Assembly (NCBI GenBank): GCA_012729785.1
Contig: JAAYCL010000002.1
Span: 1 to 25,821 of the forward strand
Direction of reading: 5' to 3'
From: Chlamydiota bacterium
Lineage (GTDB): Bacteria > Auribacterota > Tritonobacteria > UBA1439
DNA length: 25,821 nt
Shown here: piece by piece, positions 5,940 to 23,755 of the stretch
How the letters are laid out: every line of letters begins with the position of its first letter
Position numbering within the stretch: position 1 is the first letter of the stretch
The notes under the pieces: generated by a model
What the model saw: only the letters and a program-made list of their open reading frames with translations
Told to the model about the DNA's origin: nothing
Databases searched by the model: none
Made by a program: the position numbers and the translations under genes

Positions 5940-5981
5940 CGGCGTGTGGTACCATCGTGCCGTATCCGGCGGCGACGCAGG

Positions 5982-5990
5982 AGCATAGCA
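5982..5990 (-). promoter_or_regulatory. Extended -10 promoter for the transglycosylase gene
   Basis: Read on the minus strand, this is TGcTATGCT (TG at 5990-5989, hexamer 5987-5982), about 45 bases before the start at 5939. The -35 region is weak. It matches the TGcTA pattern of other promoters in the window. Confidence 0.35.
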
Positions 5991-6049
5991 CAAGACCGGG
6001 GAGCCCCGCCACCGCTAAACGCGGCGGCGTTCCCGGGAGGTCGGGCGCG

Positions 6050-9820: not shown

Positions 9821-9833
9821 GGGGGGATGCGCC

Positions 9834-10325: not shown

Positions 10326-10392
10326 CGCGCCCATCCCCCCAAAGGGTGGAGGGGAAGAGCGCGATGGAAGGGGCGGGCGCAAGGCGGACAAG

Positions 10393-11592
10393 ATGAAGAT
10401 TCCCATCGCGAAGCGCGTCCGGGAGATGCCCCCGTCCGGTATCCGGCTCTTCTTCGACCTGGTCATCGGGATGGACGACGTCATCTCTCTCGGCGTCGGC
10501 GAGCCGGACTTCGACACCCCGTGGCGCATCCGCGAGACCGGCATCTACTCGCTCGAGCAGGGGTTCACCTCCTACACCTCGAACAGGGGGCTGCGCGAAC
10601 TCCGCGCCGAGATCTCCGACTTCTTGAGGGGGCGGTACGGGCTCCGCTACGACCCGGACGACGAGATCCTCGTCACCGTCGGGGTGAGCGAGGCCGTGGA
10701 CCTGGCCCTGCGGACGATCCTCGACCGGGGGGACCGGTTCCTCGTCCCCCAGCCGTGCTTCGTATCCTACGCGCCGATGACGAGCCTCGCGGGGGGCGAG
10801 GCGGTGCGCATCCCGCTCAGCGAGACGTCGGGGTTCAAGCTCACCCCGGCGCTCTTGCGCCGTCACCTGGGGCGCGACGCGCGGGGGATCATCCTCAACT
10901 ACCCGTCGAACCCGACCGGCGTCTCCTACCGCAGGGAGGAGCTCGCGGCGCTCGCGGCCGCGATCCGCCGCACGAGGCTCACGGTGCTGAGCGACGAGAT
11001 CTACGACGAGCTCACCTACGACTTCGAGCACACCCCGTTCCCGCTCCTCCCGGGGATGCGGGAGCGGACAATCTATCTGAACGGTTTCTCCAAGGCGTAC
11101 GCGATGACCGGCTGGCGGATCGGCTACGCGGCGGGGCCGCGGGGGGTCATCGACGCGATGACCAAGATCCACCAGTACGCGATCATGTGCGCGCCGACGA
11201 TGGCGCAGGTTGCCGCGTGCGAGGCGTTGCGCAGGGGGGGGAAGGACGTCCGGGAGATGAAGCGCGAGTACGACCGCCGGAGGCGGCTCGTGCACGGGCG
11301 GCTCATGCGGATGGGGCTCGACTGCGTGCGGCCCGACGGCGCGTTCTACATCTTCCCCTGCATCCGCTCATCCGGCCTCGACTCGATGGAGTTCTCAAAG
11401 CGCCTGCTCAAGGAGGAGAAGGTCGCGGTGGTGCCCGGGACCGCCTTCGGAGAGGTGGGGGAGGGGTTCGTCAGAATCTCCTACGCCGCAAGCTACGAGA
11501 ACCTGAAGGAGGCGCTCGACCGAATCGAGTGCTTCCTGCGGCGCCTGCGTGCGGACTCGCCGCGGCGCGAAGGATCCGCGGGCGGGAGGTAG
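10393..11592 (+). CDS. Class I/II PLP-dependent aminotransferase
   Basis: The 399-residue enzyme belongs to fold-type I aminotransferases (aspartate/alanine/aromatic group). Seen are ISLGVGEPDFDTP near residue 32, FTSYTSNRGLRELR, ILNYPSNPTG (the NPTG substrate loop), VLSDEIYDELTYD and NGFSKAYAMTGWRIGY with PLP lysine K234, plus a conserved Arg in EGFVRISYA near the C-terminus. Length is typical. Pairing with an Lrp gene is common for this branch, often annotated as aspartate, alanine or N-acetyl-L,L-diaminopimelate aminotransferase; the exact substrate cannot be decided by eye. The hydrogenase-related gene starts 9 bases after its stop, so both could be on one transcript. Confidence 0.8.
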   Translation: MKIPIAKRVREMPPSGIRLFFDLVIGMDDVISLGVGEPDFDTPWRIRETGIYSLEQGFTSYTSNRGLRELRAEISDFLRGRYGLRYDPDDEILVTVGVSEAVDLALRTILDRGDRFLVPQPCFVSYAPMTSLAGGEAVRIPLSETSGFKLTPALLRRHLGRDARGIILNYPSNPTGVSYRREELAALAAAIRRTRLTVLSDEIYDELTYDFEHTPFPLLPGMRERTIYLNGFSKAYAMTGWRIGYAAGPRGVIDAMTKIHQYAIMCAPTMAQVAACEALRRGGKDVREMKREYDRRRRLVHGRLMRMGLDCVRPDGAFYIFPCIRSSGLDSMEFSKRLLKEEKVAVVPGTAFGEVGEGFVRISYAASYENLKEALDRIECFLRRLRADSPRREGSAGGR

Positions 11593-11601
11593 GGCGGTCG
11601 T

Positions 11602-12633
11602 ATGGACGTGCGGCACGTCTCGGAGCAGAACTGGCACGCGTTCGTCGGGTCGCTCGCGCGCACGATGCGCATCTGCCACCCGGTCGCGCACGAAGACGAC
11701 TATCGCCTCGCCGCCTGCGGGCCGGGCGGCTGCCCACGGATCGGCTGGAACCGGTACCGCGCGGTGCAGTCCCTGAAGCCGCTTCTCTTCGAGGCGCGCC
11801 TCGACGTGGGCGAGGTCCTCGGTGCGGGGGGGGCGCCGGATGCCGGCGGCGCGCCGCAGGCGGTGTTCGGGGCCAAGGCGTGCGATCTCGCCTCGCTGGC
11901 CGTGCTCGACTTCGTCTTCGCCGACGAGACGGCGGACCCGTTTTACGCCCGCAACCGGAGACGGACGCTCATCGTCTCCTCGGACTGCACGGCGTTCAAG
12001 GAGGTCTGCTTCTGCACGCTCGTCGGGGGGAAGCCGTACCCGGAGAAGGGATTCGACCTCAACCTCTCCCCCGCGGGAGGGGGGTACCTTGTCGAGGCGG
12101 GGAGCCCAAAAGGGCGGGCGCTCCTCGACGAAGCGCGGGAGCTCTTCTCCCCCCCCTCCGCCGCGCAGCTCGCGGAGGTCGCCGCGGCGCGGAAACGGCT
12201 GACGGCGGCCCTCGAGGAGCAGCAGCGGGCCCGCGGCTACGCGTGGGGCGGCACGTCGAAGGAGCTGATTGAGCGGGTCTTCGAGTCGGGCGTCTGGGCC
12301 GAGGAGGCGGAACGCTGCGTCGAGTGCGGCGCGTGCAACTTCGTCTGCCCGACCTGCCACTGTTTTCTCCTCTCCGACCACGGCCGGGAACGGTTCACGC
12401 GCCTCCGGAACTGGGACTCGTGCCAGTACAAAGGGTTCGCGCGGGTGGGGGGAGGGGGCAACCCGCGGCCCGAGCTCTATCAGCGGCTCCGCAACCGGTA
12501 CGAAAAGAAGTTTCATTTCTGCCCGGTCGTGATGGGGGTCTCCGGCTGCACCGGGTGCGGGCGGTGCGTCGAGGCGTGCATCGGACGGATCGACATGCGC
12601 GAGGTGATGAAGAAGCTGAGCGGCTGCAGGTAA
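11602..12633 (+). CDS. hydB: Sulfhydrogenase beta-subunit-like iron-sulfur protein (HydB/AsrA family)
   Basis: The 343-residue protein has the HydB/AsrA layout. An N-terminal domain carries the family motif FGAKACDLASLAVLD (89-103), then ADPFYARNRR and VCFCTLVGG (135-143), where a conserved cysteine cluster sits. A C-terminal ferredoxin domain has C239xxC242xxC245xxxC249 and C316xxC319xxC322xxxC326, two [4Fe-4S] sites. In soluble hydrogenase I of Pyrococcus (sulfhydrogenase), HydB passes electrons between the flavoprotein HydG and the hydrogenase core; in anaerobic sulfite reductase AsrA does a similar job. Here no sulfhydrogenase alpha/delta pair follows, but the gamma homologue and a membrane hydrogenase do. 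A direct link to that hydrogenase is inference from position. Confidence 0.75.
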   Translation: MDVRHVSEQNWHAFVGSLARTMRICHPVAHEDDYRLAACGPGGCPRIGWNRYRAVQSLKPLLFEARLDVGEVLGAGGAPDAGGAPQAVFGAKACDLASLAVLDFVFADETADPFYARNRRRTLIVSSDCTAFKEVCFCTLVGGKPYPEKGFDLNLSPAGGGYLVEAGSPKGRALLDEARELFSPPSAAQLAEVAAARKRLTAALEEQQRARGYAWGGTSKELIERVFESGVWAEEAERCVECGACNFVCPTCHCFLLSDHGRERFTRLRNWDSCQYKGFARVGGGGNPRPELYQRLRNRYEKKFHFCPVVMGVSGCTGCGRCVEACIGRIDMREVMKKLSGCR

Positions 12634-12638
12634 CATTT

Positions 12639-12903
12639 CACCGCGGAGATCACGGAGAAGACGCGGTTTCTTTTTCGCCGCGGATTTACGCGGATCAACA
12701 CGGATCAGGATTCTGTTTCTTTCGACAATCCGTGAAGATCCGTGCGATCCGCGGCAACGATACACGGAATTCGCCGCGGGGATAACGTCCCGCCGCAGGG
12801 GACACGGAGGAGAAGGGCGTGGGGGCGTGGGGGCGTGGAGGATGCCGAAGCGATGATCCCCGCCGCCTTCGCCGTTCTCCGTGAACTCCTCGTTCTCCGT
12901 GGT
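12639..12903. repeat. Nested palindromic intergenic element
   Basis: The whole gap between the beta and gamma genes is repeat-like. Outer arms: CACCGCGGAGATCACGGAGAA (first 20 of the left arm from 12639) and, inverted, 12875-12903 (TTCTCCGTG...CTCCGTGGT). Inner arms: 12678-12705 (starting CCGCGGAT, ending ACACGGAT) and inverted 12728-12754, about 21 of 27 positions matching, with a 22-base loop. Between inner and outer right arms lie three tandem copies of GGGCGTGG (12815-12838). CGCGGAT/ACACGGAT repeats of this type are a known intergenic repeat theme in many environmental genomes. Confidence 0.6.
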
Positions 12904-12915
12904 ACAACGTATGCC

Positions 12916-13734
12916 ATGATGAAAAACCCGTATCTCCCCGTCGGGGCGACGATCGAGAAGGCGGTCGCGGAGAGCGCCACGATCAAAAGCTTCCTCCTCG
13001 CGCCCGACGAGCCGATGCCGTTCCGCACCGGGCAGTTCGTCGAGCTCACCGTGCCCGGGGTGGGGGAGGCGCCGTTCACCCCCTCCAGCTCCCACTTCGA
13101 GCGGGAGCGCCTCGAACTCACCGTGATGCGGGTTGGGACGGTCACCGCCCGCCTGCACGAGATGCGGGAGGGGGAGCGGGTGGGCGTCAGGGGCCCGTAC
13201 GGGAACGGGTACCCGCTCGAGGAGTTCGAGGGGAAGACGGTCGTCATCTGCGGCGGCGGGGTCGGGCTCGCGCCGCTCCGGTCGCTCCTCCTCACGCTGC
13301 GGCACGAGATCGACCGATACGCCCGGGTGCTGTTGCGCTACGGGGCGCGCACGCCCGCCGATATCATCTACCGCGCGGAGGTCGATCGCTGGCGCCGCGA
13401 CCCGAAGCTCGACGTGGTCCTCACCGTGGACCGGGGCGACGCCTCCTGGGGAGGGAACGTCGGGCTCGTCACGACGCTGCTGGAGGACCTGGGGGTGGAG
13501 CCGGCGCGGGCCGTTGCGGTGGTCTGCGGCCCCCCGATCATGATGAAGTTCACCACCTTCAAGCTGCTCGACGTCGGCTTCGCCCCGCGCGACATCTACC
13601 TCTCGATGGAGAAGAACATGAGCTGCGGCCTCGGGAAGTGCGGCCACTGCCGCCTGGGGCCGTTCTACGCATGCAAGGACGGCCCGGTCTTCACGTACGA
13701 TCAGATCAAGGACCTCCGGGAGATCTGGGACTGA
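12916..13734 (+). CDS. hydG: Sulfhydrogenase gamma-subunit-like FAD/NAD(P)H oxidoreductase (HydG/AsrB family)
   Basis: The 272-residue protein is a ferredoxin-NADP-reductase-fold flavoprotein. Residues of about 8-100 form the FAD barrel (FRTGQFVEL, then VGVRGPYGNGYP). The NAD(P)-binding half has VVICGGGVGLAPLRSLL (109-125) and AVVCGPPIMM (201-210). The C-terminus binds a [2Fe-2S] cluster through C237, C242, C245 and C253, followed by the family hallmark KDGPVFTYDQIK. It exchanges electrons between NAD(P)H and HydB-type iron-sulfur proteins. The start is one of two adjacent ATGs (12916, 12919). No Shine-Dalgarno is visible and a TGgTACAAC box (12901-12908) ends only 7 bases upstream, so the message may be nearly leaderless. 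In-frame codons upstream lie in the repeat. Confidence 0.8.
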   Translation: MMKNPYLPVGATIEKAVAESATIKSFLLAPDEPMPFRTGQFVELTVPGVGEAPFTPSSSHFERERLELTVMRVGTVTARLHEMREGERVGVRGPYGNGYPLEEFEGKTVVICGGGVGLAPLRSLLLTLRHEIDRYARVLLRYGARTPADIIYRAEVDRWRRDPKLDVVLTVDRGDASWGGNVGLVTTLLEDLGVEPARAVAVVCGPPIMMKFTTFKLLDVGFAPRDIYLSMEKNMSCGLGKCGHCRLGPFYACKDGPVFTYDQIKDLREIWD

Positions 13735-13780
13735 ACGGGGCGGCGGCCCGCCGACACGGCGCTGATGATCGTGCGTCGAT

Positions 13781-13854
13781 GGCATCCCTGCGAAAGCAGG
13801 AATCCGGTCGCCAGGGGAATATCGGTTGAATCCAGGCTTTCGCCGGGATGACGG
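13781..13854. repeat. Palindromic dispersed-type repeat (VIPAKAG-encoding class)
   Basis: Left arm 13781-13807 (GGCATCCCTGCGAAAGCAGG...) and right arm 13826-13854 (...CTTTCGCCGGGATGACGG) are imperfect inverted copies. Read on the minus strand the unit encodes a VIPAKAWIQ-like phantom peptide, the signature of a widespread intergenic repeat class in GC-rich bacteria. It fills the 173-base gap between the gamma-subunit gene and the TPR gene. Confidence 0.65.
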
Positions 13855-13907
13855 TATGAAAGATCCATCCGGGGCCCCGTGAGACACGGTGGGGGAGGGA
13901 ACAGGCG

Positions 13908-14663
13908 ATGACGCAATGCCCGCGGTGCAACGCGGCGAACGCGACGAAGAGCAAGTTCTGCGCCGAGTGCGGCATGAGCCTGCGCGAGACCGGCGCGGCG
14001 GTGCACATGGACCGCGGCTACCTCGCGATCCGGCGCGGCGACGTGGACGAGGCGGTGAAGGAGTACCGCGAGGCGATCCGGATCGACCCGTCGAACTCGC
14101 GCGCGCACCGCGAGCTCGCGGCGATCTACTACCACCGGGACATGCTCCCGGAGGCGCTCGAGGAGAACAAGCGGGCGGTGGAGCTCGACCGGGATTTCGG
14201 CATCGCCCACTACGAGCTCGGCACCGCCTACTACCGCCTGGGGATGTTCGACGAGGCGATCGCCGCCTACGAGGCGGCGCTCCGTGCGACCCCGTCGCTC
14301 TACCTCGCCAACTTCCGCCTCGGGGTCATCTACTACTACCGCGGCCACCTCGAAAAGGCGATCGCGATGTACAAGACGGCGCTCGAGCACAACCCGAACC
14401 TGAAGTTCATCCACTACCACCTCGCCATCGCCTACGCGCGGCGGGGGCTGCTCAAGGAGACGATCGAGCAGTTCAAGATCGTGCTCGCCATGGACCCGAA
14501 GATGGCCGCCGCCCACTACCATATCGGCTGCGCCTACTACTACAAGGGGGATCTCGACAAGGCGATGGCGCACTTCGAGAAGGCGCTGTCGCTCGACCCG
14601 CTCGACGAGCAGTCGGCGAGGAACCTCCGGACGCTGAAGGATTTGCGGGGGAGGTTCTTCTGA
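13908..14663 (+). CDS. Zinc-ribbon TPR-repeat protein
   Basis: The 251-residue protein starts with a small zinc ribbon (C4-x2-C7...C18-x2-C21), then about six tetratricopeptide repeats of 34 residues from residue 36 to about 240. Each shows the W/Y-L-G-Y-A-P pattern (for example YELGTAYYRLGMFDEAIAAYEAAL). No signal peptide is seen, so it should be cytoplasmic. GGGGGAGGGA lies 7 bases before the ATG. It sits between the beta/gamma pair and the hydrogenase operon, 34 bases from the latter. TPR proteins are scaffolds; assembly or anchoring of the hydrogenase is possible but unproven. Confidence 0.8.
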   Translation: MTQCPRCNAANATKSKFCAECGMSLRETGAAVHMDRGYLAIRRGDVDEAVKEYREAIRIDPSNSRAHRELAAIYYHRDMLPEALEENKRAVELDRDFGIAHYELGTAYYRLGMFDEAIAAYEAALRATPSLYLANFRLGVIYYYRGHLEKAIAMYKTALEHNPNLKFIHYHLAIAYARRGLLKETIEQFKIVLAMDPKMAAAHYHIGCAYYYKGDLDKAMAHFEKALSLDPLDEQSARNLRTLKDLRGRFF

Positions 14664-14697
14664 CCCCGGGGCCGGTCCGCGGCGCGCCGGAACGACG

Positions 14698-15219
14698 ATG
14701 AAGAAGCTGATCGTGAATCTCGACATCTGCAGCGCATGCCCGGGGTGCGTGACGGGGTGCAGCTACTACTACCACCCGTCCAACCGCGGGATCGACCGGC
14801 TGCGCGAACTCGCCGTCTACGCCCTCGTCTGCCGCCGCTGCGAGCACGGGACCTGCGTCCGCGCATGCCCCGTGGAGGCGCTCGAGAGGGACGCCGAGGG
14901 GGCGCTGGAGCGGCACCCGATGCGCTGCGTCGGGTGCGGCTCCTGCGCGCACGCCTGCCCGTTCGGGACGATCTACCCCGAGCTGCTGCCGTACGCGCTC
15001 TCGGGGTGCGACCTCTGCTTCGACAGGGCGGGAGGGGAGCCGCCGGTCTGCGTGCGAAGCTGCCCGTACGGAGCGCTCGACTGGCGCGAGGAAAACGACC
15101 TCCCCGAGGAATCGGTCCCGCTGCTCGGGGACCGCATCCAGGGCATCTCGCATCACTGGTCGAGGAGGAGGTGCCTGGGCCCGCCGCCGGGCGCCGGGCA
15201 CCGCGGGGGGGCGGGATGA
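14698..15219 (+). CDS. Four-cluster [4Fe-4S] electron-transfer protein (HycB/CooF/HydN type)
   Basis: The 173-residue protein has sixteen cysteines in four ferredoxin-like sets: C11/C14/C17/C21, C45/C48/C53/C57, C77/C80/C83/C87 and C104/C107/C118/C122. This is the layout of HycB, CooF, HydN and DmsB-type subunits, which link a dehydrogenase or other electron source to a group 4 hydrogenase on the cytoplasmic side. No formate dehydrogenase or CO dehydrogenase gene is in the window; the HydB/HydG pair upstream is the nearest possible partner. The tail (from about 155) is basic and Gly/Pro-rich. Only a weak CGGA precedes the ATG. The stop overlaps the next start (ATGA). Confidence 0.8.
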   Translation: MKKLIVNLDICSACPGCVTGCSYYYHPSNRGIDRLRELAVYALVCRRCEHGTCVRACPVEALERDAEGALERHPMRCVGCGSCAHACPFGTIYPELLPYALSGCDLCFDRAGGEPPVCVRSCPYGALDWREENDLPEESVPLLGDRIQGISHHWSRRRCLGPPPGAGHRGGAG

Positions 15220-16142
15220 AGACGCTGTGCATCTACCTGATCTTTCCCGGCTTCGCCGCCACGGCGGTCGCGGGGATGCTGGCGTCGTGGGTCGAGCGGA
15301 AGCTGACCGCGCGCATCCAGTGGCGCGTCGGGCCGCCGTGGTACCAGTCGTTCGCGGACATCCTGAAGCTGCTCGCGAAGGAGACGGTCGTCCCGCGCGG
15401 CTGCTCCCGGGGGCTCTTCGCCGCGGCCCCGTTCGCGGGGCTGGCGGCGGTGGCGCTGGTCGCGAGCATGCTCGGGGCCTCGTGCCTGGATCCGGCGCGG
15501 GGGTTCGTCGGCGACCTGCTCGTCATCGTCTACCTTCTGGTGCTCCCCCCGCTCGCCCTCATCGCGGGCGGGGCGGCGTCCCGCAACACGCTCGCCTCGC
15601 TCGGGGCGAGCCGAGAGATGAAGCTCATGATCGCCTACGAGGTCCCGATGACCCTCGCCCTCCTCGTCGCCGTCATCAAGGCGGGCGTCACGATCAACAC
15701 CGGCGCGATCGTCGCCTTCCAGCGCCTCCACGGGGCGTTCCTCGGGAGTTTCTCCGGCGCCCTGGCCTTCGCGGCGGCGCTCCTCTGCGTGCAGGCGAAG
15801 CTCGGCTTCGCCCCGTTCGACATCGCCGAGGCCGAGACGGAGCTGAGCTCCGGCCCGCTCATCGAGTACTCGGGAAGCATGCTCGCGGCGTTCCGGCTCA
15901 CGAAGATGATGCTCCTCGTCGTGCTCCCCGCCCTCCTGCTCGCCCTCTTCGCGGGCGGGGCGCGGTTTCACGGTTGGGGAATCGTGCGTTCCCTAGTAGA
16001 ATACGGGGCGGTGCTGCTCCTCGTCACCTTGATCAAGAACACGAACCCGCGCCTCCGCATCGACCAGGCGCTCGCCTTCTTCTGGGGGCCGGTGACGGCG
16101 GCGGCGGGGGGGGCGGTGCTGTTGGCGCTCATGGGGTATTGA
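15216..16142 (+). CDS. NuoH/HyfC-like membrane subunit of group 4 hydrogenase
   Basis: The 308-residue integral membrane protein has about eight hydrophobic segments. It keeps the family motifs that face the hydrophilic arm: WVERKLTARIQWRVGPPW near residue 26, SREMKLMIAYEVPM near 131, and FAPFDIAEAETELSSGPLIEYSG near 197, rich in the conserved Glu and Asp residues of the quinone-site/E-channel region. In group 4 hydrogenases this subunit (HycD, HyfC, EchB, MbhM) anchors the peripheral arm and couples redox change to ion movement. The start overlaps the preceding stop by ATGA. A promoter-like sequence lies near its end. Confidence 0.88.
   Translation: MKTLCIYLIFPGFAATAVAGMLASWVERKLTARIQWRVGPPWYQSFADILKLLAKETVVPRGCSRGLFAAAPFAGLAAVALVASMLGASCLDPARGFVGDLLVIVYLLVLPPLALIAGGAASRNTLASLGASREMKLMIAYEVPMTLALLVAVIKAGVTINTGAIVAFQRLHGAFLGSFSGALAFAAALLCVQAKLGFAPFDIAEAETELSSGPLIEYSGSMLAAFRLTKMMLLVVLPALLLALFAGGARFHGWGIVRSLVEYGAVLLLVTLIKNTNPRLRIDQALAFFWGPVTAAAGGAVLLALMGY
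15974..16002 (+). promoter_or_regulatory. Possible internal promoter
   Basis: TTGGGG (15974-15979), a 17-base spacer and TAGAAT (15997-16002) stand out in the GC-rich NuoH-like gene. They could give a separate start for the hydrogenase subunit genes from 16159 on. Position inside a coding gene keeps confidence low. Confidence 0.25.
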
Positions 16143-16158
16143 ACAGACCGGTGATCAG

Positions 16159-16572
16159 ATGAACTGGAAACGCTGGGCGCGCGCCAGGTCGCCGTGGGTC
16201 TTCCATCTCTCGACCGGGTCGTGCAACAACTGCGACATCGAGATCATCGACTGCCTGACGCCGCGCTACGACGTGGAGCGGTTCGGCATCCTCCTCGTCT
16301 GCAGCATCCGGCATGCCGACATCCTCCTCGTCACCGGCTCGATCAACCGGCGCGCGGCGCCCAAGATACGCGAGCTCTACGAGAGCGCGCCGAAACCGTG
16401 CCTCGTGGTGGCGTGCGGCACCTGCGCCTGCGGGCAGCACCTGTTCAAGGAGAGCTACCACACGATGGAGCCGCTCGACGCGCACGTGCCGGTGGACGTC
16501 TACATCCCCGGCTGCCCTCCGAAGCCGGAGGCGCTGATCAGCGGGATCGTGAAGGCGATCGGGACCCTATGA
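16159..16572 (+). CDS. [NiFe]-hydrogenase group 4 small subunit (NuoB/HycG-like)
   Basis: The 137-residue protein carries the proximal [4Fe-4S] cluster next to the NiFe site. Motifs are STGSCNNCDIE (C22, C25), VVACGTCACG (C86, C89, C91) and YIPGCPPKPEAL (C119), as in HycG, EchC and NuoB. It has no twin-arginine signal, so it is cytoplasmic, as expected for group 4 enzymes. The short length matches this group and not the larger periplasmic small subunits. It starts 17 bases after the NuoH-like stop and its own stop overlaps the next gene. Confidence 0.9.
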   Translation: MNWKRWARARSPWVFHLSTGSCNNCDIEIIDCLTPRYDVERFGILLVCSIRHADILLVTGSINRRAAPKIRELYESAPKPCLVVACGTCACGQHLFKESYHTMEPLDAHVPVDVYIPGCPPKPEALISGIVKAIGTL

Positions 16573-17012
16573 GCGCGTCGATGGAGAGGATACGCGAGGC
16601 GTTCGCGGACCGTTTCTCCCGCTGGGAGGAGCGGCACGGGAAACGCTTCTACGCCGAGCTCGCCGCCGACCGCCTCGTGCCGACGGCCCGCGCCCTCTGC
16701 GAGACATGGCGGCTCCGTTTCGTGACCGCGTCGGGGACCGACACGCGGGGGGCGATCGAGCTGCTCTACCATTTCTCGGCGGACGCGGACGGGGCGGTCC
16801 TCTCGCTGCGCGTCACCCTGCCGAAGGAGAAGCCCCGGATCGAATCGCTCGCCCCCCGCCTCAAGGCCGCCGAATGGGTCGAGCGGGAGATCGCCGAGAT
16901 GCTCGGGGTGACGTTCGTCGGCCACCCGGACCCCCGCCGCCTCCTCCTCGCCGACGACTGGCCGGCGGGGGTCCATCCGCTGCGCCGCGACGCGGGGGGG
17001 GAGGGGAGATGA
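16569..17012 (+). CDS. NuoC/HycE-N-like hydrogenase subunit (30-kDa-type)
   Basis: The 147-residue protein matches the 30-kDa subunit family: LLYHFSADADGAVLSLRVTLP strand pair, then AAEWVEREIAEMLGVTFVGHPDPRRLLLADDW near residues 97-128, the conserved NuoC block that packs against the large subunit. In E. coli HycE and HyfG this domain is fused to the large subunit; here it is separate, as in Mbh and Ech-like enzymes. ATGA overlaps join it to both neighbours. Confidence 0.85.
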   Translation: MSASMERIREAFADRFSRWEERHGKRFYAELAADRLVPTARALCETWRLRFVTASGTDTRGAIELLYHFSADADGAVLSLRVTLPKEKPRIESLAPRLKAAEWVEREIAEMLGVTFVGHPDPRRLLLADDWPAGVHPLRRDAGGEGR

Positions 17013-18196
17013 CCGAGCGGATCATCCCGGTGGGGCCGTACCACCCGCTCCAGGAGGAGCCGGAGTTCTTCAAGCTCCACGTCGAGGGGGAGCGCGTGGT
17101 GAAGCTCGACGTGCAGCTCGGCTACAACCACCGCGGCGTCGAGGGGCTCGCGGAGACGAGGTCGTACGACCAGATCCTGTTCCTCGTGGAGAGGATCTGC
17201 GGCATCTGCTCGACCAGCCACCCGTTCGCGAGCGTGAACGCGGTCGAGAACCTGATCGGCTGCGAGGTCCCCCCGCGCGCCCGCTACATCCGCAGCGTCG
17301 TCGGCGAGCTCGAGCGGATCCATTCGCACCTCCTCTGGCTCGGCCTCGCGGGCCACTTCATCGGCTACAACACGGTGTTCATGTGGGCCTGGAAGACGCG
17401 CGAGATCGTCCTCGATCTCCTCGAGCGGATCAGCGGGAACCGCCAGAACTACTCGATGTTCAAGATCGGGGGGGTGCGGCGCGACATCGCCGACGCCGAG
17501 ATCCCCTCCCTCCTCGCCGCGCTCGACACCCTCCGCCCCGCCCTCGACCTGTTCCGCGGCGCGGTCGTGGACGACCCGGTGATCCACGCCAGGACGAAGG
17601 GCGTCGGGGCGCTCACCGCCGACGATATCCGCGCCTACGGGGCGGTGGGGCCCACGGCGAGGGCGTCCGGGGTCGACATCGACGTCAGGAGGGACGACCC
17701 GTACGCCGCCTACGGGGAGGTCCGGTGGAAGGTCGTCACCGGGACGCGCGGCGACGTCTACGACAAGCTCCTGGTGCGGATCCTCGAGATGTACGAATCG
17801 CGGTCGATCATCGTCCAGTGCCTGAACGGTCTCCCGCCCGGGGAGATCGACGCCCGGGTGAAGGCCGTTCCGGCGGGCGAGGGGATCGGGCGCCACGAGG
17901 CCCCGCGGGGGGAGGTCTTCCACTACGTGCGGAGCGACGGGACGAACCGCCCGGCCCGCTACAAGGTGCGCGCGCCGAGTTTCATGAACGTCGCCACGAA
18001 CGCCCGGGCGGTCGTCGGCCAGACCGTCTCCGACGCCACGATCATCCTGGCCGCGGTGGACCCGTGCTACTGCTGCACCGAGCGGATGGCCGCGGTCGAC
18101 GCGTCGACCGGGGAGACGCGCTGGGACAGCGACGCCCTGATCCGTCTCTCCCGGGAGAAGACCGCCCGGATCCGGAGAAGGATGGGCATCCGATGA
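17009..18196 (+). CDS. [NiFe]-hydrogenase group 4 catalytic large subunit (NuoD/HycE-like)
   Basis: The 395-residue subunit holds the NiFe active site. Both ligand pairs are intact: ERICGIC (C64, C67) and DPCYCC (C353, C356). This separates it from NuoD of complex I, which lacks them. After DPCYCCTER a 36-residue C-terminal tail follows; cleavage after Arg359 by the protease encoded downstream would match HycE maturation (there DPCYSCTDR followed by Met). Other family stretches are LGYNHRGVEGL (37-47), ELERIHSHLLWLG and RAPSFMN. It reduces protons to H2 or oxidises H2 in the cytoplasm at the membrane arm. There is no in-frame TGA at the active site, so no selenocysteine. Confidence 0.93.
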   Translation: MTERIIPVGPYHPLQEEPEFFKLHVEGERVVKLDVQLGYNHRGVEGLAETRSYDQILFLVERICGICSTSHPFASVNAVENLIGCEVPPRARYIRSVVGELERIHSHLLWLGLAGHFIGYNTVFMWAWKTREIVLDLLERISGNRQNYSMFKIGGVRRDIADAEIPSLLAALDTLRPALDLFRGAVVDDPVIHARTKGVGALTADDIRAYGAVGPTARASGVDIDVRRDDPYAAYGEVRWKVVTGTRGDVYDKLLVRILEMYESRSIIVQCLNGLPPGEIDARVKAVPAGEGIGRHEAPRGEVFHYVRSDGTNRPARYKVRAPSFMNVATNARAVVGQTVSDATIILAAVDPCYCCTERMAAVDASTGETRWDSDALIRLSREKTARIRRRMGIR

Positions 18197-20001
18197 ACGC
18201 CGCATGGCCGCTCATTCTCCTTCCGTCTTTCGCGGCGGCCGTCTGCCTCGCCTTCAGGCGCCGCCCCGCGTTCTGCGCCGCCTGCGCCGTCGCGGCGCTG
18301 GGGGCGGAAGGGGCGCTGGCGGCGCTCCTGTTCGCGCGCGGCGCCGCCCCGTGGGGATGGAACGGCGTTCCGCTCCTCGCCGCCGACGGGCTGTCGCGCC
18401 TCGTCTGCCTCGGGATCGCCTGCTTCGGGCTCCTGGCGGGCGTCTACTCGCTCGGCTGGTTTGCCCCGCGGGAGCGGGGGGGGGCGTACTGGTGCCTGCT
18501 GCTCCTCACGGAGGCGGCGGGCATGGGCGTGGCCCTCGCCGACCACCTCGTCCTCCTCCTCTGCGCCTGGGGGTTCATGGGCATCACCCTGTACCTCCTC
18601 ATCGCCGCGGCCGGTCCCGCCGCCGCGGACGCGGCCAAGAAGACGATGCTGATGGTGGGGGGGACGGATGCGTTCATGGTCCTCGGCGTCGCGCTCCTCT
18701 CCTTTCATGCGGGGGCGGGGGTGCGTCCCGCCTCCCCGCTCCCCCTCTCGGGGGCGGCTGCGTGGACCGCGTACCTGTGCATCGCCGCGGCCGCCTTCGC
18801 GAAGGCGGGGGCGGTCCCGTTCCACACCTGGATCCCCGACTGCGCGGAGCGCGCCCCGGTCCCCGTCACCGCCCTCCTCCCCGCCTCGCTCGACAAGCTC
18901 CTCGGGATCTACCTCGTCGCGCGGGCGAGTCTGACCCTGTTCGCCATGAACGCGGGGATGCAGAGGCTCCTGCTCGCCGTGGGCGCGGCGACGATCATCT
19001 GCGGCGTGATGATGGCGATGGCGCAGCACGACCTCAAGCGCCTCCTCGGCTACCACGCCGTCTCGCAGGTCGGCTACATGCTGATCGGGATAGGGACCGG
19101 GAACGCGGTGGGGATCGCCGGCGGGCTGTTCCACATGCTCAATCACAGCATCTACAAGACCTGCCTCTTCTTCTCCGCCGGCTCCGTGGAGCGGCGGGCG
19201 GGCACCGCGGATCTCGACGGCCTCGGCGGCCTCTCCCGGGCGATGCCGGTCACCTTCGCCGCGACCCTCATCGCCAGCCTCTCGATCTCCGGGGTCCCGC
19301 CGCTCAACGGGTTCGCGTCGAAGTGGATGGTCTACCAGGGGCTTCTCGAGATGGGGCGGCACGGTGGAAAACTCTGGACGGTCTGGCTGCTCGCGGCGAT
19401 GTTCGGGAGCGTCCTCACGCTCGCGAGCTTCGTGAAGGTCGTGCAGGCCGTCTTCCTCTCCCCCCCCTCCTCGCCGTCCGCGCGGGGGCGCGGGGCGGTG
19501 CGCGAGGCGGGCGCGTCGATGGCGGGGCCCGCGGCGGCGCTCGCGGCGGCGTGCGTCGCCCTGGGCGTGTGGGCGGTGCCGCTCGGCGTCGCGCCGCTGA
19601 TCAGGCCGGCCGTCGGGGCTGCGGTGTCGTTCCCCGGGTTCTGGAATTCCACGGCCGCGACCGTGCTGCTGGCCGCGGGGCTCCTTCTCGGCCTCCTCGT
19701 ATGCCTCGCCGGCCGCCTCTCCCGCGCGCGGGAGTGCGCGCCGTTCATCGGGGGCGAGGAGGGCACGCCGGAGATGATCCTCTCGGGCACGGACTTCTAC
19801 CAGACGATCACCGAGATGCGGGGGCTGCGGGGCATCTACCGTGCCGCGGGCCGGCGGGGATTCGACCTGTACGACCGCGGCCGCGACGCGGTCTTCGCCG
19901 CGGCCCGGCTGCTCCAACGGGCGCACGGCGGCTGCCTGCCCGTATACATCGCCTGGTGCCTGGCGGGGCTCGCGGCCGTCGTCTGGGCCCTGGCGCGATA
20001 G
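18193..20001 (+). CDS. First antiporter-like membrane subunit (NuoL/MrpD/HyfB-like) lacking the TM5 glutamate
   Basis: The 602-residue protein has about 14-16 membrane segments and the proton-conducting transporter domain. Key lysines are present: K204 (AFAKAGAVPFHTWIPD), K235 (LDKLLGIYL), K282 (HDLKRLLGYHAVSQVGYM) and K377 (FASKWMV). The conserved TM5 glutamate, normally W-E, is glycine here: AW126-G127-FMGITLYLLI (codon GGG at 18571-18573). The C-terminal 100 residues end in a FIGGEEGTPE...GRRGFDLYDRGRD segment and a last helix, as in Mrp/Mbh-type subunits. It should belong to the ion-translocating arm, but the missing Glu casts doubt on pumping by this subunit. ATGA overlap with the large subunit gene. 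Confidence 0.85.
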   Translation: MNAAWPLILLPSFAAAVCLAFRRRPAFCAACAVAALGAEGALAALLFARGAAPWGWNGVPLLAADGLSRLVCLGIACFGLLAGVYSLGWFAPRERGGAYWCLLLLTEAAGMGVALADHLVLLLCAWGFMGITLYLLIAAAGPAAADAAKKTMLMVGGTDAFMVLGVALLSFHAGAGVRPASPLPLSGAAAWTAYLCIAAAAFAKAGAVPFHTWIPDCAERAPVPVTALLPASLDKLLGIYLVARASLTLFAMNAGMQRLLLAVGAATIICGVMMAMAQHDLKRLLGYHAVSQVGYMLIGIGTGNAVGIAGGLFHMLNHSIYKTCLFFSAGSVERRAGTADLDGLGGLSRAMPVTFAATLIASLSISGVPPLNGFASKWMVYQGLLEMGRHGGKLWTVWLLAAMFGSVLTLASFVKVVQAVFLSPPSSPSARGRGAVREAGASMAGPAAALAAACVALGVWAVPLGVAPLIRPAVGAAVSFPGFWNSTAATVLLAAGLLLGLLVCLAGRLSRARECAPFIGGEEGTPEMILSGTDFYQTITEMRGLRGIYRAAGRRGFDLYDRGRDAVFAAARLLQRAHGGCLPVYIAWCLAGLAAVVWALAR

Positions 20002-20014
20002 GGGGGGATCCGCG

Positions 20015-20491
20015 GTGACGCTCGTCGTGCTGTGCGTGCTGATGCTCGCGGGGGCGCTCGTGGCGACGGAGGAGGAGAGGCCCGGCGCCTCGGCCCTGGC
20101 CGCCGGCGCGGCGGGGCTCGCCCTCGCGGGGGCGTTCCTCTCGATGGGCGCCCCGCGGCTCGCCCTCGCGCAGGCGGGCGCGGCGATCGCCATCGCCGCG
20201 ATCCTCCTGCGCGCGGGGTCCGCGGACGGGGTCCGCGGGACGGCTGCGGGGACGCGGGCGGGGCTCGGCGCGTCGCTGCTGTTCGCCGTCCTCGTTTTCG
20301 TCGCCGCCCGGGGCCCCCTCGCCTCGCTGCTCGGCGCCGCGGCGCCCGTCGTCGGGCATCCGTCGGCGGGGCGGCTCGCCGCGGAGAGGATCCTCGATGC
20401 GGCCGTGGTGCTCGCGGCGCTGGGGGCGGCGCGGGCGGTCGCGAGGGGACGGCGAAACGGGGGGCGGGAACCGGGGGAGGGGACGCGATGA
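20015..20491 (+). CDS. Small membrane subunit, MbhD/MbhE (DUF4040, NuoJ)-like
   Basis: The 158-residue, five-helix protein starts at GTG, 8 bases after a GGGGGGG tract. The first 70 residues resemble the MbhD/DUF4040 domain, including the line FLSMGAPRLALAQAGAAIAIAAILL. In usual members this reads GAPDVALTEA, so both the Asp and the Glu are replaced (Arg, Gln). The rest resembles a shortened MbhE-like unit (SLLFAVLVFVAARGP, then AERILDAAVVLAALGAA). It is placed where Mbh and Mrp operons carry these subunits. Identification rests on position and short motifs, so it is only moderate. Confidence 0.5.
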   Translation: MTLVVLCVLMLAGALVATEEERPGASALAAGAAGLALAGAFLSMGAPRLALAQAGAAIAIAAILLRAGSADGVRGTAAGTRAGLGASLLFAVLVFVAARGPLASLLGAAAPVVGHPSAGRLAAERILDAAVVLAALGAARAVARGRRNGGREPGEGTR

Positions 20492-20790
20492 GCCAGGCGG
20501 CGCTTCCGGCGACCCTCGGCCTTCTGCTCTTCTGCGCGGGCGTGTACGCGATGCTCGCGAAGCGGAGCATCTCCAAGACCGCGCTCGGCGTCGTGCTCTG
20601 TTCCTACGCGGCGGCCTTCCTCGCGGGGCTGCTCTCCGCGGGAACGCCCGGCGGGGTCGAGGGGGGGATGGCGTGGGCGGGGATCGCCGCGCAGCTCGCC
20701 GCCGCCCTCCTGCTCGCCCCCATGGGGGCGGGGCTCCGGCGCCGCTTCGGCACCGACGACCTCGCGAAGATCAGGGGGCTCAAAGGATGA
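20488..20790 (+). CDS. Small membrane subunit, NuoK/MnhC/HyfE-like
   Basis: The 100-residue protein has three predicted helices. LLLFCAGVYAMLAKRSISKTALGVVL matches the NuoK/MnhC pattern (G-x-Y-x-L-x-x-R-x-x-I-K-x-x-x-G). The TM2 Glu that normally follows this Gly (GLE) is Val here (GVV), and the second helix acid is not seen in AGIAAQLAAALLLA either. Start and stop both overlap neighbours through ATGA. The charged tail FGTDDLAKIRGLKG should face the cytoplasm. Confidence 0.6.
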   Translation: MSQAALPATLGLLLFCAGVYAMLAKRSISKTALGVVLCSYAAAFLAGLLSAGTPGGVEGGMAWAGIAAQLAAALLLAPMGAGLRRRFGTDDLAKIRGLKG

Positions 20791-22292
20791 GCGGGGGGGG
20801 GGGGATGAACATCCTGCCGCTGCTGCTCGCCGCGCCGTTCGCGGGGGCGTGCGTCTGCGCCGTCTCCGGGAAACGTTTCGCGGCCCTGGTGCGGACGGCG
20901 GCGTCCCTCGCCGTCTTCTGGCTCTCCCTCCGCGCGGCGGCGCGCGTTTGCCTCGGCGGCGCCTTCGCCTGGGAGGCGGCGGGGCTCGCCGTCGACGGCC
21001 TCTCGGCCCTCCTGCTCGTCACGGTGGGCCTGATCGGCTTCGCGGTGTCGCTCTACACGCACGGCTACCTGGCGCCGTCCGCGCGGGAAGGGGGGTTCTC
21101 CGCGCTCTTCCTGCTCATGACGGGGGGGATGGTCGGGACCGTCTGCGCCGCCGACCTCGTCTCGCTCGTCGCCTTCCTCGAGATCGCCTCGCTGGCGAGC
21201 TACGCCCTGGTCGCGCACGGAGGGGGGAAAGACGCGCTCGAGGCCGGCTTCAAGTACCTTGCGATCGGCTGCCTCGCCTCGCTCTTCGCCTTCCTCGGGG
21301 CCGCCGTGCTCCGCTCCGCCACGGGCGCGGCATCCCTCGCGGACGCCGCCTCCGCCCTCGCCGCCCCGGGCGCCACGCCGGCCCTCCGGCTGGCGGCGGG
21401 TCTTCTCATCGCGGGGTTCGGCACGAAGGCCGCCCTCGCCCCGTTCCACGCCTGGCTCCCGGACGCCCACACCTCCGCCCCGGCACCGGTCTCCGCGATG
21501 CTCTCGGGGGTCCTGGTCAAGGCCCTGGGCGTCTACGCCCTGCTCAGGCTCTTCCTCGCCGCCCCGGGGCCGGGCGTCGCGGGCGTGCTGGCGACGCTCG
21601 CCGCGGTTTCGATCATCGGCGGCGCCCTCCTCGCCGCGGCGCAGCACGACTACAAGCGGCTTCTCGCCTGGTCCTCCGTGAGCCAGGTCGGCTACATCGT
21701 CGCCGGGGCCGCCACCGGCACGTCGCTGGGGATGGCGGGGGCGCTCCTGCACCTGTGCGCCCATTCGGCGGCCAAGTCGGCACTCTTCCTCTCGGCGGGG
21801 GCGGTCGACAGGGCGGCCGGGACGCGCGACCTGCGCCGGCTCGGCGGGCTCAGGGAGCGGATGCCGGTCACCGCGTCGTCGTCGCTCGCCGCATCGCTGT
21901 CGCTGGCCGGCGTGCCGCCGCTCGGCGGCTTCTGGAGCAAGCTGTTGATCCTCCTCGGGTGCGTCGAGGCGGGGCTCGGAGGCCTCGCCTGCGCGGCGGC
22001 GCTCGGGAGCCTCCTCACGCTGGGCGCCGTGATGAAGGCGCAGCGCGCCATCTTCTACGGCGAATTGAGACCGCACTGGGACGCGGTGCGTGAGGCGCCG
22101 CCGTCGATGCGGGCGCCGATGGTCGCGCTCGCCGTCCTCTCCGCGGCGGCGGGCCTCCTCCTGCTCCCCGGGCCGCCGCGCGCCCTGCTCGCGGGGGCGC
22201 GCGACGCCCTGCGCGGCACGCGGCAGGCGGCGCGGTTCGCCGCCGGAGACGCCGCGGAGGCCCGGGCAAAGAACGGGGTCCGGCTACGATGA
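20787..22292 (+). CDS. Second antiporter-like membrane subunit (NuoN/MrpD/MbhH/HyfF-like)
   Basis: Numbered from the ATG at 20805 the protein is 495 residues with about 14 membrane segments. It keeps the full set of conserved ion-path residues: E126 in AFLEIASLASYAL (TM5), Lys in GTKAALAPFHAWLPDAH, Lys in LVKALGVY, HDYKRLLAWSSVSQVGY, and Lys in FWSKLLILL. It is thus the better candidate for real ion translocation in this complex. Two starts are possible: ATG 20787 (ATGA overlap, giving a 501-residue form beginning MSGGGGM) and ATG 20805, separated by a run of twelve G. The first is chosen because every neighbouring junction uses ATGA coupling; the second has the G-run as ribosome-binding site. 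Confidence 0.85.
   Translation: MSGGGGMNILPLLLAAPFAGACVCAVSGKRFAALVRTAASLAVFWLSLRAAARVCLGGAFAWEAAGLAVDGLSALLLVTVGLIGFAVSLYTHGYLAPSAREGGFSALFLLMTGGMVGTVCAADLVSLVAFLEIASLASYALVAHGGGKDALEAGFKYLAIGCLASLFAFLGAAVLRSATGAASLADAASALAAPGATPALRLAAGLLIAGFGTKAALAPFHAWLPDAHTSAPAPVSAMLSGVLVKALGVYALLRLFLAAPGPGVAGVLATLAAVSIIGGALLAAAQHDYKRLLAWSSVSQVGYIVAGAATGTSLGMAGALLHLCAHSAAKSALFLSAGAVDRAAGTRDLRRLGGLRERMPVTASSSLAASLSLAGVPPLGGFWSKLLILLGCVEAGLGGLACAAALGSLLTLGAVMKAQRAIFYGELRPHWDAVREAPPSMRAPMVALAVLSAAAGLLLLPGPPRALLAGARDALRGTRQAARFAAGDAAEARAKNGVRLR
20793..20804 (+). repeat. Poly-G tract (12 G) at a gene start
   Basis: Twelve consecutive G lie between the two possible start codons of the second antiporter-like gene (20787 and 20805). 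If translation starts upstream, a change in tract length shifts the frame; if it starts downstream, the tract is the ribosome-binding region. Confidence 0.8.
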
Positions 22293-22903
22293 GGGCGCCG
22301 AAACTGAGGGAGCTGCGGGAGGGGATTCGCGCGCTCTTCGGGCGCCGCTGCACGACGCGCTTCCCGGCGGCCGGGACGGAGGTGCCGGAGGGGTTCCGCG
22401 GGGTGCCGCGCTTCGACGAAAAGGGGTGCGTCGGCTGCGGGGCGTGCGCCGTCGTCTGCCCGGTGAAGGATATCGAGGTGACCGACTCGTTGCGGGACAG
22501 GAAAGGGACGCGGCGGCTCACCATCCACCTGGACGACTGCATCTTCTGTGCGCAGTGCGCGAGGAACTGCATCACCGGGAAGGGGGTGGTGATGACCCCC
22601 GACTTCGACCTCTCGACGGACGACCGCGGGAAGATCCGGGAATCGATCGAGAAGGAGCTTGTCCTCTGCGAGCTCTGCGGGGAGGTCGTCGGCGCCCGCG
22701 ACCATCTGCTCTGGATCGCGCGGCGCGTGGGGCCCGCCGCATACACCAATCCCACCCTGATGCTTCCCATGCTCGACGCCCTCGCCCCAACGGAGGAACC
22801 GCCCCCTGGCGGGCGGGATGGGACCCTCCGGGGGGACCGGATGCGGGTGCTCTGCCCGCGCTGCAGGAGGAGCTCCACCGTTGAGTTCTCCATGGAGGGA
22901 TGA
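22289..22903 (+). CDS. NuoI/HyfH-like two-[4Fe-4S] ferredoxin subunit with extra C-terminal CxxC pairs
   Basis: The 204-residue protein bridges the electron donor and the small subunit. It holds two cluster motifs: C47xxC50xxC53xxxC57-P and C84xxC87xxC90xxxC94; the second lacks the usual Pro after the last Cys (NCITG). Two further pairs, LCELC (C127, C130) and LCPRC (C189, C192), could form a rubredoxin-like or zinc site, seen in some group 4 hydrogenase ferredoxins. The segment of about 161-185 is Pro/Gly-rich and flexible. ATGA overlap with the antiporter gene; its 3' end overlaps the protease gene by 23 bases. Confidence 0.85.
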   Translation: MRAPKLRELREGIRALFGRRCTTRFPAAGTEVPEGFRGVPRFDEKGCVGCGACAVVCPVKDIEVTDSLRDRKGTRRLTIHLDDCIFCAQCARNCITGKGVVMTPDFDLSTDDRGKIRESIEKELVLCELCGEVVGARDHLLWIARRVGPAAYTNPTLMLPMLDALAPTEEPPPGGRDGTLRGDRMRVLCPRCRRSSTVEFSMEG

Positions 22904-23390
22904 GATCAGGCGCGGCCTGTGCGGAGACGGGCCGGCGCGCGGCGTCCTGCTCGGGGTGGGGAACCGGCTGCGGGGCGACGACGGGGCGGGGAGCCTCCTC
23001 GCGGCGCGGCTCGCGGCCCGGGGGATAGACCGGGCGTTCGACGGCGGCACAACCCCGGAGAACTACTGCGAGCTCGTCGCCGCCCTTTCCCCCCGGACGG
23101 TCTTCATCGCCGACGCCGCCTGTTTCGGCGGGCGGGAAGGAGAGGTGCGCCTCCTCGACCCGCGCTCCCTCGGGGCGGGGGCCTTCTCGACGCACGGGAT
23201 TTCGCTCCGTCCGCTCGCGGCGTACCTCGAGGAGCGGTGCGGCTGCCGCGTCGTGGTCGTGGGGATCCAGCCGGCCGCCGCGCGGGACGGGGAGGGGGTC
23301 AGCCCCGCCGTCACGGGCGCCGTCGCCGAGCTCGAGGACTGTTTCGCCGGTCTCCTGGGCGGCGGCGCACCGGGGGGGGCGCCCGCATGA
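22881..23390 (+). CDS. [NiFe]-hydrogenase maturation protease (HycI/HyaD family)
   Basis: The 169-residue endopeptidase trims the C-terminal tail of the large subunit after nickel insertion. Metal-sensing residues are present in LLGVGNRLRGDDGAG (D33/D34), VFIADAA (D78) and FSTHGIS (H105). The start is a TTG at 22881 with AGGAGG about 10 bases upstream; no in-frame ATG or GTG lies close to the conserved GVGNRLRGDD. Its presence fits the cleavable tail on the large subunit. ATGA overlap with the next gene. Confidence 0.85.
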   Translation: MSSPWRDEIRRGLCGDGPARGVLLGVGNRLRGDDGAGSLLAARLAARGIDRAFDGGTTPENYCELVAALSPRTVFIADAACFGGREGEVRLLDPRSLGAGAFSTHGISLRPLAAYLEERCGCRVVVVGIQPAAARDGEGVSPAVTGAVAELEDCFAGLLGGGAPGGAPA

Positions 23391-23755
23391 GATGCCGCGT
23401 CCGGATCCTCCTCTCCGCGCCGGCGGTTGTTCTGGCGGCCGTCTGCGTCCTGGCGGCCGAATCCGGCGCGCAGCCGCTCGACCGGAAGGCGATCGGCGCG
23501 CGGCGGGACGCGATGATCGACTGGGCGATCCGCAACGGGGTGGTGCTCAAGGGGATGACCAAGACGGAGGTCCACAGGGTCTACGGGTTCCCGGACAAGA
23601 AGTTCAACACCGCGACGGCCGGGGGGCGCGTTGAGAAGTGGACCTACTACCACCCGCGCCGCCGGAGCGTCTTCCCGTTCACGCGGAGCCCGTTCGCCTC
23701 GCGCTACCGGTTCCTCTACTTCAAGGACGACGTCCTCGTCGACTTCGCGCACTGA
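23387..23755 (+). CDS. Small secreted BamE/SmpA-like protein
   Basis: The 122-residue protein has an N-terminal signal peptide (hydrophobic stretch about 7-22, AESGAQ cleavage region). The mature part has the SmpA/OmlA/BamE pattern: VLKGMTKTEVHRVYGFPDKK, then a KWTYYHP strand, then YRFLYFKDDVLVDF at the end. Such domains are small alpha-beta modules in envelope proteins. It is the last gene of the hydrogenase operon and overlaps the protease gene by ATGA, so it is co-expressed, yet it must act outside the membrane. A role with the hydrogenase is not shown. Confidence 0.55.
   Translation: MRCRVRILLSAPAVVLAAVCVLAAESGAQPLDRKAIGARRDAMIDWAIRNGVVLKGMTKTEVHRVYGFPDKKFNTATAGGRVEKWTYYHPRRRSVFPFTRSPFASRYRFLYFKDDVLVDFAH

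What the first reader, a model, noticed from the sequence alone, without database searches (positions are those of the whole stretch)
11602..23755. Group 4 [NiFe]-hydrogenase locus headed by sulfhydrogenase beta/gamma-type genes
The membrane hydrogenase (large subunit with both CxxC pairs, NuoB/C/H/I-like subunits, two antiporter-like subunits, maturation protease) is preceded by homologues of HydB and HydG, which in sulfhydrogenase carry electrons to NAD(P). The usual sulfhydrogenase alpha and delta subunits are absent here. Together with the four-cluster ferredoxin this gives a complete wire: NAD(P)H, FAD and [2Fe-2S] (HydG-like), two [4Fe-4S] (HydB-like), four-cluster protein, NuoI-like, NuoB-like, NiFe. 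It could be an NAD(P)H-linked ion-translocating hydrogenase in which a sulfhydrogenase diaphorase module replaces NuoEFG.
Basis: partly seen in the sequence, partly recalled or inferred. Interest (0 to 1): 0.75.

Follow-up and report, generated by a model that had tools for sequence, protein, structure and literature searches.

The report
NAD(P)H-linked membrane hydrogenase, group 4g
This is a membrane hydrogen-making enzyme of a widespread but never characterised bacterial type (group 4g); its genes always come with an NAD(P)H-using electron-entry module borrowed from another hydrogenase family, which suggests it trades electrons with NAD(P)H rather than only with ferredoxin, as databases guess.

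Summary
HydB, HydG, a four-cluster ferredoxin and a group 4 [NiFe]-hydrogenase core lie in one gene run, and the genome has no second HydB, no second [NiFe] large subunit and no [FeFe]-hydrogenase. The linkage is not local. All 54 relatives with enough upstream DNA (Omnitrophota, Elusimicrobiota, Bacteroidota, Kiritimatiellota and others) have HydB-HydG next to this hydrogenase. These HydBs form one clade apart from sulfhydrogenase HydB and diverge in step with the hydrogenase core. The clade includes Ca. Saelkia tenebricola, published as HydDB group 4g, labelled 'ferredoxin-coupled (putative), undetermined role'. In 15 of 56 relatives a near-perfect Rex (NADH/NAD+ sensor) operator lies upstream of HydB, against at most 1 for permuted palindromes; the window's family lacks Rex and its box. 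Best reading: a reversible NAD(P)H:H+ oxidoreductase with HydBG as input module, coupled to ions where an Mrp-like arm is present. That arm is trimmed in the window and absent in sister genera that keep HydBG. Ferredoxin as co-donor is not excluded. asrA/asrB beside one such hydrogenase was noted before (PMC6349859), so this is a new functional variant of a known, uncharacterised kind. Biochemistry is lacking.

The parts
11602..12633 (+). HydB / SHI-beta / AsrA-like iron-sulfur subunit, 343 aa
   Evidence: PF17179 1.4e-26; 9nez_B 3.9e-43; predicted fold Z 34.6 to 9nf0_B over 329 residues; 14 invariant cysteines
12919..13734 (+). HydG / SHI-gamma / AsrB-like FAD, NAD(P) and [2Fe-2S] subunit, about 271 aa (start 12916 or 12919)
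   Evidence: PF00175, PF10418, PF00970; 9nez_C 4.1e-52; invariant GGGxGxAP, CGPPxMMKF and four cluster cysteines
13908..14663 (+). zinc-ribbon TPR protein, family-specific insertion in the operon, role unknown
   Evidence: TPR models; present between HydG and ferredoxin only in L122/L123/L125
14698..15219 (+). HycB/CooF-like ferredoxin subunit with four cysteine sets
   Evidence: PF13247 3.5e-13; two central cluster sets invariant in 80 relatives, the outer two in 47-85%
15216..16142 (+). NuoH-like membrane subunit
   Evidence: PF00146 5.3e-61; conserved charged residues
16159..16572 (+). NuoB-like small subunit
   Evidence: PF01058 3.9e-28
16569..17012 (+). NuoC-like subunit
   Evidence: PF00329 1.1e-25
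17009..18196 (+). [NiFe]-hydrogenase large subunit (NuoD-like), clade of HydDB group 4g
   Evidence: PF00346 and PF00374; 6cfw_L 3.3e-96; RICGIC and DPCYCC; tree
18193..20001 (+). NuoL/Mrp-like antiporter subunit 1; TM5 Glu replaced by Gly, as in 69 of 75 members
   Evidence: PF00361 6.8e-53
20015..20491 (+). MbhD-like subunit, divergent
   Evidence: PF13244 9.6e-06, below the curated cut-off
20488..20790 (+). MrpC/NuoK-like subunit
   Evidence: weak homology to MrpC-like ORFs at the same place in relatives
20787..22292 (+). MrpD/NuoM-like antiporter subunit 2 with intact Glu/Lys set
   Evidence: E132, K214, K245, K330, K385 invariant
22289..22903 (+). NuoI-like two-cluster ferredoxin subunit
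   Evidence: cysteine sets read from the sequence; syntenic in relatives
22881..23390 (+). hydrogenase maturation protease (HycI/HybD type); start codon uncertain
   Evidence: TIGR00072 3.3e-24, above the cut-off
9834..11592 (+). Lrp/AsnC-type regulator (9834-10325) and PLP aminotransferase (10393-11592) directly upstream, conserved with the operon only in this family
   Evidence: homologues immediately upstream of HydB in L123 and L125

Best explanation
The genes encode one membrane complex of the group 4g clade in which a sulfhydrogenase-type diaphorase (HydG-HydB) is fixed on a complex-I-like [NiFe]-hydrogenase and takes the place of NuoEFG. Electrons pass reversibly between NAD(P)H and protons: NAD(P)H, FAD and [2Fe-2S] in HydG, [4Fe-4S] clusters in HydB, four-cluster subunit, NuoI, NuoB, NiFe. 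Shown here by sequence: all parts present, motifs intact, linkage conserved across phyla, co-divergence, Rex operators in relatives. Inferred: physical complex, order of electron flow, nucleotide identity (NADH more likely in the Rex-controlled relatives, undecided in this genome), direction. Likely use: disposing of NAD(P)H from fermentation as H2. This is roughly thermoneutral at H2 of about 10-100 Pa and needs pull by low H2, or push by the ion gradient through the Mrp/NuoL-like arm, at higher H2. In reverse, H2-driven NAD(P)+ reduction could pump ions.
For: HydB+HydG next to the hydrogenase in 54/54 relatives with at least 5 kb upstream, gaps mostly under 100 nt; same in 11/11 informative clade members among relatives picked without regard to linkage, and all HydB hits above 200 bits in those 98 genomes belong to genomes with this hydrogenase or to its genome family. 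Linked HydBs form one clade, 100/100 support, against 19 others incl. SHI beta. Distance correlations HydB-NuoD 0.82 and HydG-NuoD 0.86 equal those within the core (NuoB-NuoD 0.84). FAD, NAD(P) and cluster residues of HydG and 14 Cys of HydB near-invariant. Rex gene beside the operon in 20 loci; Rex box with at most 1 mismatch upstream of HydB in 15/56 loci, at most 1/56 for 100 permuted palindromes, 0/56 inside the operon. HydBG is kept where the antiporter arm is lost. No other hydrogenase found in the genome.
Against: No biochemistry for any member. Rex also controls a ferredoxin-dependent Ech in Caldicellulosiruptor bescii (PMC6391272), so Rex control does not prove NADH as substrate. The window's family lacks Rex and the box. 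The four-cluster and NuoI subunits resemble ferredoxin-linked relatives, and the genome can make reduced ferredoxin (three PF01855 proteins). In the window HydG is separated by gaps and a TPR gene, so co-transcription is assumed.
Confidence: 0.62

Rival explanations
1. Dual-donor complex: reduced ferredoxin enters at the four-cluster or NuoI subunit and NAD(P)H at HydG, so the machine links ferredoxin, NAD(P)H and H2, either making H2 from both or working as an ion-coupled ferredoxin:NAD(P)+ oxidoreductase with the NiFe site as a valve.
For: Two possible entry points are encoded; the genome has PFOR-type enzymes and an Rnf complex, so both carriers are made; it eases the thermodynamic problem of NADH to H2.
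Against: No bifurcating flavin is encoded at the locus; HydG-type FAD is not known to bifurcate (own knowledge). Outer clusters of the four-cluster subunit are not conserved in all members.
Confidence: 0.2
2. Ordinary ferredoxin-coupled group 4 hydrogenase as HydDB presumes for 4g; HydBG is a separately acting NAD(P)H:ferredoxin oxidoreductase that is merely co-expressed.
For: HydDB lists 4g as ferredoxin-coupled (putative); Rex regulates a ferredoxin-linked Ech elsewhere.
Against: Invariant adjacency, exclusive HydB clade and co-divergence with the core; HydBG is kept when the antiporters are lost.
Confidence: 0.14
3. HydBG serves a different enzyme (sulfhydrogenase or sulfite reductase) encoded elsewhere in the genome.
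For: HydBG homologues do serve group 3b hydrogenases and, as AsrAB, sulfite reductase (one search names both families).
Against: Only one [NiFe] large subunit and one HydB in the genome; conserved linkage in relatives. AsrC was not searched for.
Confidence: 0.02

Closest known systems
HydDB [NiFe] group 4g ('ferredoxin-coupled, putative'; undetermined role)
   Same: Large subunit falls in one clade (97*) with that of Ca. Saelkia tenebricola MAG 3300035698_749, published as Mrp-linked 4g (PMC8542988)
   Different: The HydBG module and possible NAD(P)H input are not in the HydDB description; 4g as a whole is called polyphyletic in PMC11291895, so the trait need not hold for all 4g
Enigmatic group 4 [NiFe]-hydrogenase of Saganbacteria RX5A with asrA, asrB, cooF and Mrp-like genes (PMC6349859)
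   Same: Same gene set (AsrA/B are HydB/G homologues), closest sequences said to be from Omnitrophica and Zixibacteria; the authors suggest an oxidoreductase module
   Different: That locus also has a molybdopterin oxidoreductase; no NAD(P)H link, no conservation across phyla and no Rex control was described in the passages read
Pyrococcus furiosus sulfhydrogenase I (group 3b; 9nez/9nf0)
   Same: HydB and HydG subunits homologous over most of their length
   Different: Soluble alpha-delta hydrogenase there; here the core is membrane group 4 and HydB belongs to a separate clade
Pyrococcus Mbh (group 4d; 6cfw)
   Same: NuoBCDHI-like core plus MbhD and Mrp-like subunits; large subunit best PDB match
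   Different: No diaphorase in Mbh; ferredoxin is its donor (own knowledge)

Membership tests
[NiFe]-hydrogenase group 4 | NuoD-like large subunit with both Ni-ligating CxxC pairs, NuoB/C/H/I-like partners and maturation protease | tested here: met
   each motif found in 75 of 76 linked members, the two exceptions being short frames
HydDB group 4g | large subunit clusters with HydDB 4g members | tested here: met
   Same supported clade as Ca. Saelkia, published as 4g. The HydDB classifier itself could not be run
HydDB group 4g | ferredoxin as electron donor (putative in HydDB) | not testable with these tools
   needs an enzyme assay
Group 3b sulfhydrogenase | HydA/HydD hydrogenase pair | tested here: not met
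   single PF00374 match in the genome, the group 4 large subunit
Group 3b sulfhydrogenase | HydB/HydG-type subunits | tested here: met
   but below NCBIfam equivalog cut-offs and in a separate clade
Mbh / Mrp-linked hydrogenase (4d) | full Mrp-type antiporter set | tested here: not met
   window lacks the MrpB, E, F, G-like genes that relatives have at this place
Respiratory complex I | NuoEFG NADH input and quinone site instead of NiFe ligands | tested here: not met
   no NuoEFG in the locus; Ni ligands present

The most novel reading that the evidence does not exclude
A whole cross-phylum clade of group 4 hydrogenases is an ion-gradient-driven NADH:H+ oxidoreductase, a hydrogen-evolving counterpart of complex I built with an independently recruited diaphorase. 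It would let fermenters and syntrophs push NADH electrons uphill onto protons without electron confurcation, and in sister lineages it has shed its antiporter arm while keeping the diaphorase.
Probability: 0.35. Interest if true: 0.85.

Novelty: new variant of a known kind. Interest (0 to 1): 0.62.

Why it matters
Group 4g hydrogenases occur in many uncultured anaerobes and have been modelled as ferredoxin-driven ion pumps. If they run on NAD(P)H, energy budgets and H2 predictions for Omnitrophota, Elusimicrobiota, many Bacteroidota and others change, and a long-standing question (how NADH electrons reach H2 without confurcation) gains a directly testable enzyme. At least one apparently cultured host is in the set (Marinilabiliaceae bacterium JC017, locus L080, whose record is not marked as a MAG). 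The natural loss of the antiporter arm beside a retained diaphorase gives a ready comparison for what the arm does.

Tried and rejected
HydBG as the remnant of a sulfhydrogenase: rejected, no HydA in the genome. Chance neighbourhood: rejected, 54/54. Formate dehydrogenase as the general partner: only 3 loci (L035, L039, L043) carry an FDH-like gene upstream, and the genome's only PF00384 hit is a NuoG/GltD-type fusion. Rex control of the window itself: no box (best 4 mismatches in the whole window) and no Rex gene found in its family. A looser Rex pattern in the window gave chance-level hits. NADH versus NADPH from HydG residues: a basic residue at position 144 is conserved in both SHI and this family, so undecidable. 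Rfam found nothing. No paper found describes NAD(P)H input to group 4g; the library lacks most subscription papers, and the supplementary notes of PMC6349859 were not readable.

Full report
What is there. The window, from a 2.59 Mb, 45-contig, 96.6%-complete genome, carries one run of genes on the plus strand: HydB, HydG, a TPR protein, a four-cluster ferredoxin, NuoH, NuoB, NuoC, the hydrogenase large subunit, a NuoL-like protein, an MbhD-like protein, a MrpC-like protein, a second NuoL/MrpD-like protein, NuoI and a maturation protease. From the ferredoxin to the protease most genes overlap or abut. HydB and HydG are set apart by gaps of 285 and 173 nt. The large subunit has RICGIC and DPCYCC.

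HydB and HydG look like real diaphorase subunits. HydB matches sulfhydrogenase I beta by sequence and by predicted fold (pLDDT 88, Z 34.6 over 329 residues). HydG matches the gamma subunit. In about 75 relatives the HydG FAD motif, the GGGxGxAP loop, CGPPxMMKF and the four [2Fe-2S] cysteines are near-invariant, and HydB keeps 14 cysteines. Fourteen cysteines leave room for a third cluster; this is inference.

The linkage is conserved. One scan of 84,980 species genomes gave 80 loci whose large subunits are 61-85% identical. All 54 with at least 5 kb upstream have HydB and HydG before the ferredoxin and hydrogenase core, with median gaps of 4-9 nt. Among 98 relatives chosen without regard to linkage, all 11 clade members with both parts on the contig show it, while more distant group 4, Mbx-like and complex I loci do not. 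Two have HydBG nearby: L143 beside a 3b-like hydrogenase, and L133 in a differently ordered operon. HydB hits above 200 bits occur only in genomes that have this hydrogenase or belong to the window's family. In the large-subunit tree the linked rows form one group (97*; quick method, so placement relative to 4a and 4d is unsure). In the HydB tree the linked HydBs form one clade at 100/100 against 19 others. Pairwise distances of HydB and HydG track those of the hydrogenase core as closely as core subunits track each other.

Regulation points to NADH in relatives. A Rex gene (PF06971 plus PF02629 in two examples) lies beside the operon in 20 loci. The Rex operator TTGTGAAnnnnTTCACAA (consensus confirmed in PMC6391272) occurs with at most one mismatch upstream of HydB in 15 of 56 loci from Bacillota, Latescibacterota, Elusimicrobiota, Omnitrophota and Bacteroidota, including loci with no adjacent rex. 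A hundred permuted palindromes gave at most one locus, and the same scan inside the operon gave none. The window's own family lacks the gene and the box; the same-class genome G006 has Rex just upstream of HydB. Rex also controls a ferredoxin-dependent Ech in C. bescii, so this is support, not proof.

The antiporter arm is the variable part. The three relatives read in detail have a NuoL1 plus MbhD/MrpB/C/D/E/F/G-like genes, and most other loci have room for them. The window keeps NuoL1, a divergent MbhD, MrpC and MrpD. Sister genera G002 and G004 and the unrelated G070 go straight from the large subunit to NuoI, and G004 has no PF00361 match at E 1e-10 anywhere. NuoL1 lacks the TM5 glutamate in 69 of 75 members, while NuoL2 keeps its charged set.

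How it would work. With NADH at -320 to -280 mV, H2 formation costs 18-26 kJ/mol at 1 atm, about 1-9 at 100 Pa, and is near zero or favourable at 10 Pa or below. A complex that moves ions could be pushed by the ion gradient at high H2 or run without it at low H2. The genome supplies the setting: three 2-oxoacid:ferredoxin oxidoreductase-type proteins, Rnf genes, a glutamate dehydrogenase beside a NuoF and NuoG/GltD-fusion pair, and in this family an aminotransferase and an Lrp regulator directly upstream of HydB. Amino-acid fermentation with NAD(P)H disposal as H2 is a fair guess.

Relation to what is known. HydDB calls 4g ferredoxin-coupled (putative), role undetermined. Ca. Saelkia's enzyme, published as Mrp-linked 4g and presumed to work as other Mbh, is in this clade (L079) and has HydBG. 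PMC6349859 saw asrA, asrB and cooF beside one Saganbacteria group 4 hydrogenase and suggested an oxidoreductase module. What is added here is the cross-phylum invariance, the exclusive HydB clade, co-divergence, Rex operators, loss of the antiporter arm with HydBG retained, and the resulting NAD(P)H hypothesis. No enzyme data exist in anything found.

Noticed in passing
L133 (G088:C65), fused NuoC-NuoD frame on the minus strand, 9598-11298: An in-frame TGA replaces the second cysteine of the L1 motif (ERICGI*GTVH) of another HydBG-linked group 4 hydrogenase; a hairpin follows at once (-11.4 against -5.2 +/- 2.2 kcal/mol for shuffles) and the genome has SelA. Candidate selenocysteine at an unusual place.
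   Followed up: partly
L133, 5395-19303: A second, differently ordered group 4 operon (FDH-like, HydB, HydG, protease, NuoL, NuoL, NuoCD, NuoH, NuoI, NuoL, NuoB) whose HydB lies outside the 4g HydB clade: apparent independent recruitment of HydBG.
   Followed up: partly
L123 (G002), L125 (G004), L128 (G070): The antiporter arm is absent from the operon while HydBG and the core stay; G004 has no PF00361 match anywhere.
   Followed up: yes
window 18193-20001 and 74 relatives: NuoL1 has Gly instead of the TM5 Glu in 69 of 75 members, so its proton path may be altered.
   Followed up: partly
window 13908-14663: Zinc-ribbon TPR protein inserted between HydG and the ferredoxin only in this family of genomes.
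   Followed up: partly
window 12634-12918 and 13735-13907: Both gaps around HydG hold repeat-like DNA (tandem CGCGGATTTACGCGGATCAACACGGAT; an imperfect inverted GCGAAAGC pair), where relatives have almost no gap; the second type has only one other near copy in the genome.
   Followed up: partly
window 8789-9820 and the C-terminal part of 5957-8584: Two similar proteins, the first without a Pfam match, the second read next to a CCA-adding-enzyme-like sequence; homologues of the first lie upstream of the operon in L123 and L125.
   Followed up: no
L035, L039, L043 upstream of HydB: Formate-dehydrogenase-like and FdhD-like genes and (L039, L043) a second, distinct HydB-like gene precede the operon (FDH and FdhD read from sequence).
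   Followed up: no
G000 C22, C37, C27 (L118, L120, L121): A NuoF plus NuoG/GltD-fusion pair resembling Stn-type transhydrogenase beside glutamate dehydrogenase, and two PduS-like genes with microcompartment-type shell genes.
   Followed up: no
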